From: Caulobacter sp.
GTDB taxonomy: Bacteria; Pseudomonadota; Alphaproteobacteria; Caulobacterales; Caulobacteraceae
Length of the DNA stretch: 64,000 nucleotides
Reading direction: 5' to 3'
NCBI GenBank assembly: GCA_029866155.1
Contig: JARWZW010000050.1
Location: forward strand, 58,733-122,732
Part shown: positions 14,362 through 19,454 of the stretch, in pieces
How the letters are laid out: each line of letters starts with the position of its first letter
Position numbering within the stretch: position 1 is the stretch's first letter
The notes under the pieces: generated by a model
What the model saw: the letters and a program-made list of their open reading frames with translations, nothing else
Databases searched by the model: none
What the model was told of the DNA's origin: nothing
Program-made: the position numbers and the translations under genes

Positions 14362-15335
14362 CCCTCTCTCCGTCGTCAGCAGCCCCCGGCGATCCGCATC
14401 CCGCAGCAGGCCCGACGGGCCATCGCAGGGTGATCGGTCCTGTCGCAAGGTCCGGCGAGCGTCCGGCCCGCGCGCACGGGATCAGCTTCGAGTTCTTTCC
14501 CCCCAAGACCCCGGAGATGGAAACCAGCCTGTGGAACGCCATCCGCCGCCTGGAACCCCTCGCGCCTGACTTCGTGTCGGTCACCTATGGGGCGGGCGGG
14601 TCGACCCGAGAGCGCACCCATCGGACCGTCAAGCGGATACTGGATGAGACCGGCCTGAGACCAGCAGCCCATCTGACCTGTGTCGACGCCAGCCGCGAAG
14701 AGGTCGACCAGGTGATCCGGGACTATTGGGACGCCGGGGTTCGCCATGTTGTGGCGCTCCGGGGCGACCCGCCGGGGGGGATTGGCGGGGTCTATGTGCC
14801 GCGCGCCGACGGTTACGCTAACGCCACCCAGCTTACTTCGGCTCTCAAGGCGGCGGCCCCGTTCGAAGTGCTGGTCGGCGCCTATCCGGAAGGGCACCCG
14901 GAAAGCCCCGGACTGGCCCATGACATCGACGTCCTGAAAGCCAAGGTCGATGCCGGAGCCACGCGGGCGATCAGCCAGTTCTTCTTTGATATCGACGCCT
15001 TTCTCAGGTTCGTCGACCTGGCGCGTGACGCCGGAATCGCCATCCCGATCTCGCCCGGGATCATGCCTGTTTCCAATTTCAAGGGACTGGTGAAGATGGC
15101 GGGCGCCTGCGGAGCCTCGATCCCCGGCTGGCTGGCCAATCTGTTCGACGGGCTGGACCATGATCCGGAGACCCGTCGGCTGATCGCCTGTTCCGTCGCT
15201 GCAGAGATGTGCGCCAAGCTGGAAGAGCAGGGATTCAACGACTTTCACTTCTACACGCTCAACCGGGCGGATCTGGTCTATGCGATCTGCCGTGTCCTCG
15301 GCGTGCGCGAGACGCCCCTGGAGGCCGCAGCATGA
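14358..15335 (+). CDS. metF: 5,10-methylenetetrahydrofolate reductase MetF
   Basis: Encodes 325 residues. The catalytic domain starts near residue 42 with ISFEFFPPKTPEMETSLW, whose Glu is the catalytic acid of MetF. It continues with FVSVTYGAGGSTRERT, HLTCVDASREEVD and VVALRGDPPGG, the FAD/folate barrel signatures. It reduces methylene-tetrahydrofolate to methyl-tetrahydrofolate, the methyl donor for the MetH proteins encoded just downstream. It overlaps both neighbours by ATGA, so stoichiometric co-translation is likely. The first 40 residues are proline- and alanine-rich and look disordered; they are an extension relative to the compact E. coli protein. Confidence 0.96.
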   Translation: MTLSPSSAAPGDPHPAAGPTGHRRVIGPVARSGERPARAHGISFEFFPPKTPEMETSLWNAIRRLEPLAPDFVSVTYGAGGSTRERTHRTVKRILDETGLRPAAHLTCVDASREEVDQVIRDYWDAGVRHVVALRGDPPGGIGGVYVPRADGYANATQLTSALKAAAPFEVLVGAYPEGHPESPGLAHDIDVLKAKVDAGATRAISQFFFDIDAFLRFVDLARDAGIAIPISPGIMPVSNFKGLVKMAGACGASIPGWLANLFDGLDHDPETRRLIACSVAAEMCAKLEEQGFNDFHFYTLNRADLVYAICRVLGVRETPLEAAA

Positions 15336-16788: not shown

Positions 16789-19454
16789 GACCTGTCTTCG
16801 TCAATGTCGGTGAACGAACCAATGTCACCGGTTCGGCCCGTTTCAAGAAACTGATCGTCGAGGGCGACTACAACGCTGCTCTTTCTGTGGCGCGCCAGCA
16901 GGTCGAGGCGGGCGCCCAGATCATTGACGTCAACATGGACGAAGGCCTTCTGGACTCCCGGCAGGCCATGGTGACCTTCCTGAACCTGATGGCTGCGGAG
17001 CCCGATATCGCCCGGGTGCCGGTGATGATCGACAGCTCCAAATGGGAGGTGATCGAAGCGGGCCTGAAATGCGTCCAGGGAAAGTCCATCGTCAATTCCA
17101 TCAGCATGAAGGAAGGCGAGGCCCGGTTCATCGAACAGGCCAGGCTCTGCCTCCGCTATGGCGCCGCCGTTGTGGTCATGGCCTTTGATGAACAGGGTCA
17201 GGCCGATACGGCCGCCCGCAAGATCGAGATCTGCGAGCGGGCCTATGGCATCCTGCTGGATCGGGTGGGCTTCCCGCCGGAAGACATCATCTTTGACCCC
17301 AATATCTTTGCGGTGGCGACAGGGATCGAGGAGCACGACAACTATGCTGTCGACTTCATCGAGGCGACCCGCGCCATCAAGGCGCGTTTGCCCTATGCCC
17401 GGGTCTCGGGCGGTGTTTCCAATGTGTCGTTCAGCTTCCGGGGCAATGAGCCGGTCCGCCGTGCGATCCATTCGGTCTTTCTCTATCACGCCATCAATGC
17501 CGGGATGGACATGGGCATCGTCAACGCCGGCGACCTGCCCGTCTATGACGACATCGATCCTGAACTGAGAGAAGCGGTCGAGGACGTCATCCTCAACCGC
17601 AGGCCGGCAACAGGCGGCTCTCAGACCGAGCGGCTGGTCGATTTGGCGCCCCGATACAGGGGCGACGCCGGTCAGGTGCGGGTCGCCAATCTGGAATGGC
17701 GAACCGGAACGGTCGGGCAACGCCTGACCCATGCCCTAGTCAACGGCATAACCGAATTCATCGAGGTCGACACAGAGGAAGCGCGACTTGAGGCCGAACG
17801 GCCGCTTCATGTCATCGAGGGTCCGCTGATGGACGGCATGAATGTCGTCGGGGATCTGTTCGGCGCCGGAAAGATGTTCTTGCCCCAGGTCGTGAAATCC
17901 GCCCGGGTCATGAAACAGGCCGTGGCCTGGCTCATGCCGTTCATGGAAGCCGAAAAGGCCGGCAAGCCCCGGGAAGCGGCTGGCCGTATCCTTATGGCGA
18001 CGGTCAAGGGCGACGTCCACGACATCGGCAAGAACATCGTGGGCGTGGTCCTGCAATGCAACAACTACGAAGTCATCGACCTTGGGGTGATGGTTCCGGC
18101 CGACCGCATCCTCGACGAGGCAAAGGCCCACAAAGTCGATATCATCGGGCTTTCCGGCCTGATTACGCCCTCCCTGGATGAAATGATGTTTGTCGCTGCG
18201 GAGATGGAACGCCGGGGATTCGACATCCCGCTGCTGATCGGCGGGGCGACCACCAGCAAGACCCATACGGCGGTCAAGATCGAGCCGGGCTATCGGCGGG
18301 GGTCCACAACCTATGTTCTGGACGCCAGTCGGGCGGTGGGGGTTGTGTCGGGACTGCTGTCGCAGGAACGGCCAAGGCTGGAGGCCGAAACCCGGGCCGA
18401 CTACGTGCGGGTTCGGGAACAGTTCTCCCGCGGCCAGGCTCAGAAGACCCGGACGCCCATTGCCCTGGCGCGCGATCATCGACTGAAGATCGACTGGACC
18501 GCGCAGCCTCCCGTGCGGCCCAGCTTCGTGGGGGTGCGTTCCTTCGAGGCCTGGGATCTTGCGGATCTGGCCCGACATATCGACTGGAGCCCCTTCTTCG
18601 CCAGTTGGGAGCTGGTGGGCCGTTTTCCGGCTATTCTGGATGATGATGTTGTTGGCGAGGCCGCGCGGGACCTCTGGAAAGACGCCCAGGCCATGCTGCA
18701 GACCATCATCGCGGAGCAGTGGTTCACAGCCAGGGGAGTCGTCGGGTTCTGGCCAGCCCAGGCGATCGGCGATGACATCGCCGTCTATGCAGATGAAAGC
18801 CGCACGGAGGAACTGGCTCGCTTCCACAGCCTGCGCCAGCAGATGGACAAGTCGTCCGGCAAGGCCAACCTGGCGCTCTCCGACTTTGTCGCCCCGGTGG
18901 GCGGTCCCGCTGACTGGATCGGCGCTTTTGCGGTGACCGCTGGCCATGGCGAGGCAGAGGTGGCGAGCCGGTTCAAGGCCGCAGGGGATGACTACAACGC
19001 CATTCTGGCTGCCGCCCTGGCGGACCGGCTGGCCGAGGCCTTCGCCGAGGCCCTGCATCGAAAGGTCCGGACCGAACTCTGGGGCTATTCGCCTGACGAA
19101 GCTTTCGATATCGACCGGTTGATCGCTGAGGACTATGTCGGAATCCGACCGGCCCCAGGCTATCCGGCCCAGCCTGATCACACCGAGAAGGCGACCCTAT
19201 TCCGGTTGTTGCAGGCGGAAAGCAACACAGGCATGGCCCTGACCGAGAGCTTCGCCATGACACCGCCGTCCAGTGTCTCGGGTCTCTATTTCAGCCATCC
19301 CCGCGCCCACTATTTCGGGGTTGGCAAGGTCGACCGTGACCAGGTTGTCGATTACGCGGTGCGAAAGGGCTGGGATCTCGCCACAGCGGAACGGTGGCTG
19401 GCGCCGATCCTGGCCTATGATCCGTCTGCCCGATCAGGCGATGCAGCGGCCTGA
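16785..19454 (+). CDS. metH: Methionine synthase, folate, cobalamin and reactivation modules (split MetH, part 2)
   Basis: Encodes 889 residues from a TTG start, the only start near the first conserved block FVNVGERTNVTGSARFKKL. The pterin-binding domain follows (QIIDVNMDEGLLD, PVMIDSSKWEVIEAGLKC). The B12 domain has GDVHDIGKN with the cobalt-ligand His at about residue 412, then GLSGLITPSLDEM and LIGGATTSKTHTAVKI. The AdoMet reactivation domain ends the protein (RPAPGYPAQPDHTEK, SVSGLYFSHPRAHYFGVGKV). It moves the methyl group from methyl-tetrahydrofolate to homocysteine bound on the separate part-1 protein. The TTG overlaps the upstream TGA, so translation may depend on reinitiation. Confidence 0.96.
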   Translation: MRPVFVNVGERTNVTGSARFKKLIVEGDYNAALSVARQQVEAGAQIIDVNMDEGLLDSRQAMVTFLNLMAAEPDIARVPVMIDSSKWEVIEAGLKCVQGKSIVNSISMKEGEARFIEQARLCLRYGAAVVVMAFDEQGQADTAARKIEICERAYGILLDRVGFPPEDIIFDPNIFAVATGIEEHDNYAVDFIEATRAIKARLPYARVSGGVSNVSFSFRGNEPVRRAIHSVFLYHAINAGMDMGIVNAGDLPVYDDIDPELREAVEDVILNRRPATGGSQTERLVDLAPRYRGDAGQVRVANLEWRTGTVGQRLTHALVNGITEFIEVDTEEARLEAERPLHVIEGPLMDGMNVVGDLFGAGKMFLPQVVKSARVMKQAVAWLMPFMEAEKAGKPREAAGRILMATVKGDVHDIGKNIVGVVLQCNNYEVIDLGVMVPADRILDEAKAHKVDIIGLSGLITPSLDEMMFVAAEMERRGFDIPLLIGGATTSKTHTAVKIEPGYRRGSTTYVLDASRAVGVVSGLLSQERPRLEAETRADYVRVREQFSRGQAQKTRTPIALARDHRLKIDWTAQPPVRPSFVGVRSFEAWDLADLARHIDWSPFFASWELVGRFPAILDDDVVGEAARDLWKDAQAMLQTIIAEQWFTARGVVGFWPAQAIGDDIAVYADESRTEELARFHSLRQQMDKSSGKANLALSDFVAPVGGPADWIGAFAVTAGHGEAEVASRFKAAGDDYNAILAAALADRLAEAFAEALHRKVRTELWGYSPDEAFDIDRLIAEDYVGIRPAPGYPAQPDHTEKATLFRLLQAESNTGMALTESFAMTPPSSVSGLYFSHPRAHYFGVGKVDRDQVVDYAVRKGWDLATAERWLAPILAYDPSARSGDAAA

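What the first reader, a model, noticed from the sequence alone, without database searches (positions are those of the whole stretch)
15332..19454. Unknown protein encoded exactly at the split point of methionine synthase
MetH is divided at the linker between the homocysteine module (ends RLAGLEPFELA) and the folate module (starts RPVFVNVGERTNV). In one-chain enzymes these pieces are joined directly. Here a 132-codon gene lies in the gap, joined to each part by a 4-nt stop-start overlap and in a third reading frame. Its codon use is that of a real gene. A protein made between the two halves of a split enzyme may help them dock or deliver homocysteine. I know of no described MetH subunit of this kind.
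Basis: partly seen in the sequence, partly recalled or inferred. Interest (0 to 1): 0.72.

Follow-up and report, generated by a model that had tools for sequence, protein, structure and literature searches.

The report
Gene slot inside split methionine synthase
In the Caulobacter family the gene for the vitamin-B12 methionine synthase is cut in two, and the cut holds different genes or repeat elements in different species; the 132-residue protein found there is one conserved occupant and is likely a passenger of the operon rather than a needed part of the enzyme.

Summary
In detail: metH-N (15332-16393), a 132-aa ORF (16390-16788) and metH-C (16785-19454) lie in three frames with 4-nt overlaps. 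The ORF is a real, unnamed family: 17 of 199 Caulobacteraceae genomes carry it, median dN/dS is 0.19, AlphaFold gives a confident six-helix fold, and Pfam and NCBIfam find nothing. In all 22 genomes whose context I saw it lies between the metH halves. The docking-subunit reading is nevertheless weak. All 123 genomes whose split point I mapped have split metH: 65 hold genes from 17 ORF families (ATP-grasp ligase, DUF4259, DUF6882, RidA, amine oxidase, methyltransferase, PIN and others), 22 hold 152-220 nt, many of them palindromic, and 36 hold 106 nt or less. Relatives with at least 95% identical MetH-N often differ in slot content. An unrelated slot family (Ddl-like) keeps to the same place, and tight spacing is general there. 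Outside the family, 39 of 40 split metH genes in my class sample have 14-135 nt. I read the site as a variable insertion slot in a coupled operon, with this protein likely a long-lived passenger. A lineage-specific MetH partner is not excluded.

The parts
13390..14361 (+). ArsR-type regulator fused to a SAM methyltransferase (arsR-M like), first gene of the met operon
   Evidence: PF01022 and PF08241; same gene order as the arsRM-metF-HMT-1-metH met operon of Brevundimonas sp. M20 (PMC10190100, passages)
14358..15335 (+). metF, methylenetetrahydrofolate reductase
   Evidence: PF02219 E 1.8e-92; 4-nt overlaps with both neighbours
15332..16393 (+). metH-N: homocysteine-binding module of split MetH (353 aa)
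   Evidence: PF02574 E 3e-94, NF007024 positions 5-354
16390..16788 (+). mid: 132-aa unnamed all-helical protein in the split point, occupant of the variable slot
   Evidence: 33 homologues, 17 of 199 family genomes, dN/dS 0.19, AF2 pLDDT 89.8 with six helices, no Pfam or NCBIfam hit
16785..19454 (+). metH-C: folate, cobalamin and reactivation modules of split MetH (889 aa, TTG start)
   Evidence: PF00809, PF02607, PF02310, PF02965; NF007024 positions 359-1233, 1525.8 bits

Best explanation
The junction between the two halves of the split metH gene is a variable slot that holds different genes or palindromic repeats in different Caulobacteraceae, and the 132-aa protein of this window is one conserved occupant that is likely carried as an operon passenger and likely not needed for methionine synthase to work. 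Shown: MetH is cut at the linker between its homocysteine and folate modules, both halves are complete, and slot content differs between close relatives while the halves stay conserved. Inferred: because the two modules are separate chains, the stop-start junction is the one place inside metH where DNA can be added without breaking either module; an inserted gene is co-transcribed from the upstream promoter and translated by stop-start coupling, so genes that keep the coupling are tolerated and can be retained for their own benefit. Inferred: the 132-aa protein is a stable helical protein with a function of its own, old in Caulobacteraceae and lost or replaced several times; its biochemical role is not known.
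For: 65 of 123 mapped slots hold genes, from 17 ORF families that blastp does not join, 12 of them in 4 or more genomes; representatives match different Pfam families. Slot content is labile: of 181 genome pairs with >=95% identical MetH-N, 101 differ in slot state and 76 differ in genes; on the MetH-N tree the label 'empty' needs 24 changes (at least 8 forced by starred branches) and 'mid' 8 (at least 2 forced). In 52 of 65 occupied slots both ends are tightly spaced to metH-N and metH-C whatever the gene. 22 slots carry 152-220 nt, 21 of them without a forward ORF of 70 aa; 13 of the 22 have exact inverted-repeat arms of 12-27 nt, and one palindrome type is dispersed, with 34, 43 and 54 matches in three of eight genomes and 0 for the reversed control. 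Keeping to the place is not special: a Ddl-like family is inside the slot in 24 of 24 mapped genomes and downstream of metH-N in 16 of 16 others. Elsewhere in the class split metH has no room for such a gene in 39 of 40. Purifying selection on mid.
Against: Mid is at the slot in 22 of 22 genomes, reaches seven genera down to about 33% identity, and is the only slot gene in 11 of the 17 family genomes. Its distances follow those of MetH-N by Pearson r 0.54 (0 of 5000 permutations as high), though by rank only 0.23. A pure passenger might be expected to turn up elsewhere at least once, as DUF6882 does (5 of 18 hits). The slot map uses only the 123 genomes whose two halves were both in the printed rows, on one contig and strand, so more distant genomes are under-sampled. 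The coupling count and the inverted-repeat arms had no random control. The direction of each change (gain or loss) is not resolved: 54 of 134 inner branches of the tree are open and its root is a midpoint.
Confidence: 0.65

Rival explanations
1. Lineage-specific MetH partner: the protein binds the split enzyme (docking, homocysteine delivery, or tuning of cobalamin reactivation) in the lineages that have it, and other lineages lost it or replaced it by other slot proteins.
For: 22 of 22 occurrences seen in context lie between the halves; purifying selection; confident predicted fold with conserved Arg-rich first and last helices; some co-divergence with MetH-N (Pearson 0.54, rank 0.23); stop-start spacing would favour matched amounts.
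Against: Most relatives with split MetH lack it (17 of 199 have it) and 39 of 40 splits outside the family have no room for such a gene; an unrelated ligase-like family keeps to the same place; tight spacing is general in the slot and in the operon. It evolves faster than either MetH half (median dN/dS 0.186 against 0.136 for metH-N and 0.096 for the first about 500 residues of metH-C).
Confidence: 0.23
2. Coupling spacer: the slot gene's reading frame matters, not its protein; any ORF that carries ribosomes from the metH-N stop to the metH-C start keeps metH-C translated.
For: Unrelated ORFs are repeatedly tightly spaced at both ends (52 of 65); among the 123 mapped gaps none is a long stretch without an ORF: they are 220 nt or less, or hold one of the ORF families.
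Against: A junction of 27 nt or less is common (27 of 123) and would do the same; mid's amino-acid sequence is conserved (dN/dS 0.19), which a spacer does not need; 22 slots carry 152-220 nt, many palindromic.
Confidence: 0.07
3. Spurious ORF or assembly artefact.
For: The window comes from a draft genome of 73 contigs.
Against: Homologues at the same place in 22 genomes, two of the 17 family genomes being single-contig, purifying selection, and a confident predicted fold.
Confidence: 0.01

Closest known systems
Two-part split MetH (Sphingomonas koreensis, PMC7857596; met operon arsRM-metF-HMT-1-metH of Brevundimonas sp. M20, PMC10190100; passages seen)
   Same: MetH in two parts; in Brevundimonas the same operon order, including the ArsR-methyltransferase fusion and metF.
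   Different: In the passages I saw, no gene is reported between the two parts; here a 132-aa gene sits there, and 65 of 123 mapped relatives have some gene at this point.
Three-part split methionine synthase of Phaeobacter inhibens / MtgC-MtgD-MtgE of Ruegeria pomeroyi (PMC5764234, PMC12478193, PMC12366255; passages seen)
   Same: B12-dependent methionine synthase made from separate chains.
   Different: There, by PMC12478193, the pieces have not simply separated from classical MetH, and by PMC5764234 RamA-like and DUF1638 proteins take part in reactivation; here the pieces align end to end with one-chain MetH and the reactivation domain is kept.
Chromosomal gene-insertion hotspots (general concept, recalled)
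   Same: Conserved flanking genes with unrelated, changing cargo between them.
   Different: The flanks are two halves of one enzyme in a coupled operon; no integrase or transposase was among the slot representatives searched with Pfam; cargo is mostly one to five genes on the operon's strand.
Small palindromic mobile repeats of alphaproteobacteria (MITE-like; CIR elements of Caulobacter, PMC2229807, passages seen)
   Same: Dispersed palindromic repeats in Caulobacter relatives; one palindrome type of the slot occurs tens of times in three genomes.
   Different: I did not test for the GANTC motif, target duplications or a mobilising enzyme, nor identity with CIR; several palindrome types occur in the slot. 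The window's own slot carries the 132-aa gene and no such repeat.

Membership tests
B12-dependent methionine synthase MetH, split form | Homocysteine, folate, cobalamin-cap, cobalamin and reactivation domains all present over the two chains, aligning end to end with one-chain MetH | tested here: met
   PF02574; PF00809, PF02607, PF02310, PF02965; NF007024 5-354 and 359-1233
B12-dependent methionine synthase MetH, split form | The two chains assemble into an active enzyme | not testable with these tools
   No multimer prediction or assay available
Obligate MetH subunit (the 132-aa protein) | Found wherever MetH is split at this point | tested here: not met
   17 of 199 Caulobacteraceae genomes have it; all 123 mapped ones are split and 11 of them carry it; 39 of 40 splits outside the family have gaps of 14-135 nt
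Obligate MetH subunit (the 132-aa protein) | Found only with split metH | tested here: met
   22 of 22 genomes whose context was seen; no plasmid or phage match. The context of most of the 113 database homologues, among them the Allosphingosinicella-labelled P0061, was not visible
Obligate MetH subunit (the 132-aa protein) | Physical binding to MetH or effect on activity | not testable with these tools
   Needs complex prediction or experiment
Variable gene-insertion slot | Unrelated gene families at one place between conserved flanks | tested here: met
   17 ORF families in 65 of 123 slots, Pfam on representatives
Variable gene-insertion slot | Turnover between close relatives | tested here: met
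   76 of 181 pairs with >=95% MetH-N identity differ in gene content
Variable gene-insertion slot | Dedicated integration machinery | tested here: inconclusive
   No integrase or transposase among the representatives searched; not every ORF was searched, and genes elsewhere in the genomes were not examined
MITE-like palindromic repeat (slots of 152-220 nt in relatives) | Dispersed copies in the genome | tested here: met
   One type only: 34, 43, 54 matches in G096, G077, G175; 7, 2, 1, 0, 0 in the other five genomes; control pattern 0 in all eight
MITE-like palindromic repeat (slots of 152-220 nt in relatives) | Target-site duplication and a mobilising enzyme | not tested
   -
HEPN / nucleotidyltransferase-partner helical fold | Fold match clearly above unrelated helical bundles | tested here: inconclusive
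DUF2267 (name given by one source to homologue P0016) | Pfam DUF2267 gathering score | tested here: not met
   No Pfam hit for the window protein or for P0016

The most novel reading that the evidence does not exclude
The 132-aa protein is an ancestral third component of the Caulobacteraceae methionine synthase that came with, or soon after, the splitting of MetH and bridges or tunes the homocysteine module; later lineages replaced it at the same place with other slot-bound proteins such as the Ddl-like ATP-grasp ligase plus DUF4259, so the split point is an exchangeable regulatory socket of MetH rather than a passive cargo slot.
Probability: 0.17. Interest if true: 0.8.

Novelty: new variant of a known kind. 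Interest (0 to 1): 0.5.

Why it matters
Splitting an enzyme at a domain linker is usually discussed for its effect on the enzyme. Here the cut also marks a place inside a coupled operon where different genes and repeats are found in different species, while both enzyme halves stay conserved. That gives a natural experiment, with many relatives and many inserts at one site, on how operons take in new genes and how stop-start coupling arises. It also warns that 'encoded exactly between two subunits' is weak evidence for a shared complex. Two families that keep to the slot (the 132-aa protein and the Ddl-like ligase) remain the best candidates for real functional partners.

Tried and rejected
Fold-based function: AF2 model, Foldseek PDB, VIA and viral library gave no Foldseek match at E<=0.001 and mostly common helical bundles; the PDB sequence search with A2 gave nothing below E 0.08; PADLOC none for mid or three other slot proteins; PHROGs matched 1 of 34 members at E 0.00099 to a tape-measure family, taken as chance; Pfam matched P0091 weakly to Cse1, below its cut-off, taken as chance. 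Riboswitch control of the operon: Rfam gathering search of 10000-24500 gave 0. Mobile-element carriage: no plasmid or phage match for mid, none for P0061 on plasmids. Mid outside the family: none in the class sample of 190 genomes apart from the window's own; homologue P0061 carries an Allosphingosinicella MAG name but I could not see its context. The idea that 4-nt overlaps mark a complex was rejected, because the other junctions of this operon have them and unrelated slot genes are similarly spaced. Papers: in the listings of searches, and in the passages read, I saw no description of genes at the split point of metH; most subscription journals are missing from that library.
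Full report
Observation. The five genes 13390-14361, 14358-15335, 15332-16393, 16390-16788 and 16785-19454 lie on one strand and every junction is a 4-nt stop-start overlap. Domain searches identify an ArsR-methyltransferase fusion, MetF, the homocysteine module of MetH, an unnamed 132-aa protein, and the folate-cobalamin-reactivation part of MetH. The two MetH pieces align to model positions 5-354 and 359-1233 of one-chain MetH, so the cut is at the linker and the 132-aa protein (here 'mid') is not a piece of MetH.

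Mid is a real family. A protein search found 33 homologues at E<=1 and a profile search 113 at E<=0.1 (alignment A2, uses 63 of the 113 plus the window protein). Conserved features are an N-terminal helix with invariant arginines and a C-terminal helix around QAV..SRRL.L..RE. For 9 close loci, 36 pairs, the median dN/dS is 0.186 (range 0.093-0.387) against 0.136 for metH-N and 0.096 for the first about 500 residues of metH-C (dS is often near or above 1, so values are rough). The predicted structure is confident (pLDDT 89.8, pTM 0.85, six helices), but fold searches give only generic helical bundles. The window's genome has one copy.

Distribution. In 199 Caulobacteraceae genomes the profile finds mid in 17, in 7 of 22 genera, while MetH-N is found in 193 and MetH-C in 195 of 199. 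In 190 genomes sampled over the class only the window's own has mid. In all 22 mid is flanked by metH-N and metH-C on the same strand; in 11 of the 17 family genomes it is the only slot gene, in 6 another gene lies beside it.

The slot. I combined the printed rows: 123 genomes have both halves on one contig and strand. The other genomes were dropped because one half was not in the printed rows or lay on another contig, which biases the set to closer relatives. None of the 123 is one-chain: the printed open frame of each metH-N hit is below 750 aa. The distance between halves runs from -1 to 4868 nt. I fetched 87 gaps of 140 nt or more, and five others, and grouped forward ORFs of at least 70 aa by blastp. 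65 of 123 slots (all gaps of 382 nt or more) hold at least one of 17 ORF families. Genomes per family, over all genomes where I could see it: Ddl-like 40, DUF4259 20, mid 17, DUF6882 10, RidA 7, PNPOx 6, methyltransferase 6, flavin amine oxidase 5, and four families with 4 each, including a PIN protein with a small partner in front; five were seen once. Pfam was run on 20 representatives and eight more proteins, not on every ORF; several families have no Pfam match. In the class sample the one other Caulobacterales genome (G380, another family, gap 451 nt) holds a gamma-glutamyl cyclotransferase-like gene.

Repeats in the slot. 22 slots are 152-220 nt long; 21 have no forward ORF of 70 aa, G186 has one of 72 aa. 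13 of 22 have exact inverted-repeat arms of 12-27 nt, 8 have arms of 8-11 nt (which could be chance) and one (G118) none (no shuffled control was run for the arms). One palindrome type was searched in eight genomes: 34, 43 and 54 matches in G096, G077 and G175, 7 in G093, 2 in G000, 1 in G130 and none in G122 and G140, with 0 for the reversed control pattern in all eight. So at least one slot repeat is a dispersed element. Palindromic repeats of Caulobacter are described in PMC2229807 (passages read); I did not test identity with them. The remaining 36 slots have -1 to 27 nt (27 genomes) or 80-106 nt (9 genomes).

Turnover. Of 181 genome pairs with at least 95% identical MetH-N, 101 differ in slot state and 76 in genes, the latter involving 49 genomes. 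Examples: palindrome against DUF6882 (G175, G132), methyltransferase against amine oxidase plus RidA (G176, G150), 99 nt against DUF6882 (G140, G059). On a tree of 137 MetH-N proteins 'empty' needs 24 changes and mid 8 (shuffled means 44.5 and 16.3), so both labels are clustered, not random; starred branches alone force at least 8 and 2. The tree is a quick one with 54 of 134 branches open and a midpoint root. Mid lies on both sides of that root and in several groups, so loss or replacement of an old resident is a simple reading, but direction is not proven. Over 22 loci mid distances follow MetH-N distances by Pearson (r 0.54, 0 of 5000 permutations as high) but only weakly by rank (0.23); vertical descent is supported only in part.

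Controls on the subunit idea. Keeping to the place: a Ddl-like subfamily (the 40 top-scoring hits, separated from ordinary Ddl by a large score gap) is inside the slot in the 24 mapped genomes and downstream of metH-N on the same strand within 3.1 kb in the 16 whose metH-C was not in the printed rows (G152 counted inside although it overlaps metH-C by 4 nt). DUF6882 is at the slot in 13 of 18 hits and elsewhere in 5; three of the 13 (G104, G109, G149) lie downstream of the slot Ddl, with metH-C not mapped. So exclusive position is shared by an unrelated enzyme and does not by itself show a MetH function; DUF6882 shows that other residents do occur elsewhere, which mid was not seen to do. Coupling: in 58 of 65 occupied slots some ORF starts within -20 to +30 nt of the metH-N stop, in 57 an ORF ends in that range of a metH-C start, in 52 both (a generous criterion without a random control). 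Need: among 59 class genomes with close MetH (59 of the 99 with any match; I left out G000 and G002 as Caulobacteraceae, G261 as cut by a contig end, and 37 with distant MetH), 17 are one-chain, 40 split and 2 unresolved, and 39 of the 40 splits have 14-135 nt. Sphingomonas koreensis has metH in two parts, with mild mutant phenotypes for either part in a strain that also has MesD (PMC7857596, passages), and Brevundimonas sp. M20 is described with the same operon and no middle gene (PMC10190100, passages).

Reading. The best-supported account is a variable slot at the split, with mid a conserved long-term passenger. Shown: complete MetH halves, different and changing occupants, a dispersed repeat, conservation of mid. 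Inferred: co-expression by coupling, tolerance as the reason for occupancy, lack of need for MetH. The main counter-evidence is that mid was never seen outside the slot and is conserved over seven genera, which keeps a lineage-specific partner possible. The neighbouring junction metF|metH-N also carries insertions (22 of 42 loci have 780-901 nt there, and a metallo-beta-lactamase-fold gene was found in 15 of the 42; some loci are the same genome), so the split point may be one of several open junctions of this operon; I did not compare its variety quantitatively.

Novelty. I saw no description of genes at a metH split point in the searches named in Tried and rejected. Split MetH, insertion hotspots (recalled) and palindromic repeats are each known; their combination at the joint of a split enzyme appears new.

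Noticed in passing
13368-13383: A perfect 16-nt palindrome, ATAAAGATATCTTTAT, lies just upstream of the ArsR-methyltransferase gene and may be its operator; PMC10190100 reports a different palindrome for Brevundimonas ArsRM, which was not found in the window.
   Followed up: partly
L033:3683-4543, L034, L036, L037, L038, L043 and others: In 15 of 42 loci examined a metallo-beta-lactamase-fold gene (PF00753) was found by the metF / metH-N junction; 22 of 42 have 780-901 nt there, so other genes may occur too. In the window this junction is a 4-nt overlap.
   Followed up: partly
L178:465-1466 (-) and 39 other genomes: A Ddl-like ATP-grasp subfamily, distinct from ordinary D-Ala-D-Ala ligase, found in 40 of 40 genomes inside the metH split point or downstream of metH-N within 3.1 kb, often with a DUF4259 protein; its substrate is unknown.
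   Followed up: partly
L190, L191, L185, L186, L184: A flavin amine oxidase and a RidA-family protein occur together in the slot of five of five genomes with the oxidase, a likely metabolic pair.
   Followed up: no
G380 slot, L309:54-479: In another Caulobacterales family the slot holds a gamma-glutamyl cyclotransferase-like gene (PF06094).
   Followed up: no
L032 record title: The closest named record is a MAG labelled Brevundimonas vancanneytii whose met operon proteins are 91-97% identical to this window's (mid 85%), whereas other near relatives carry Caulobacter titles; the species label may be wrong.
   Followed up: no
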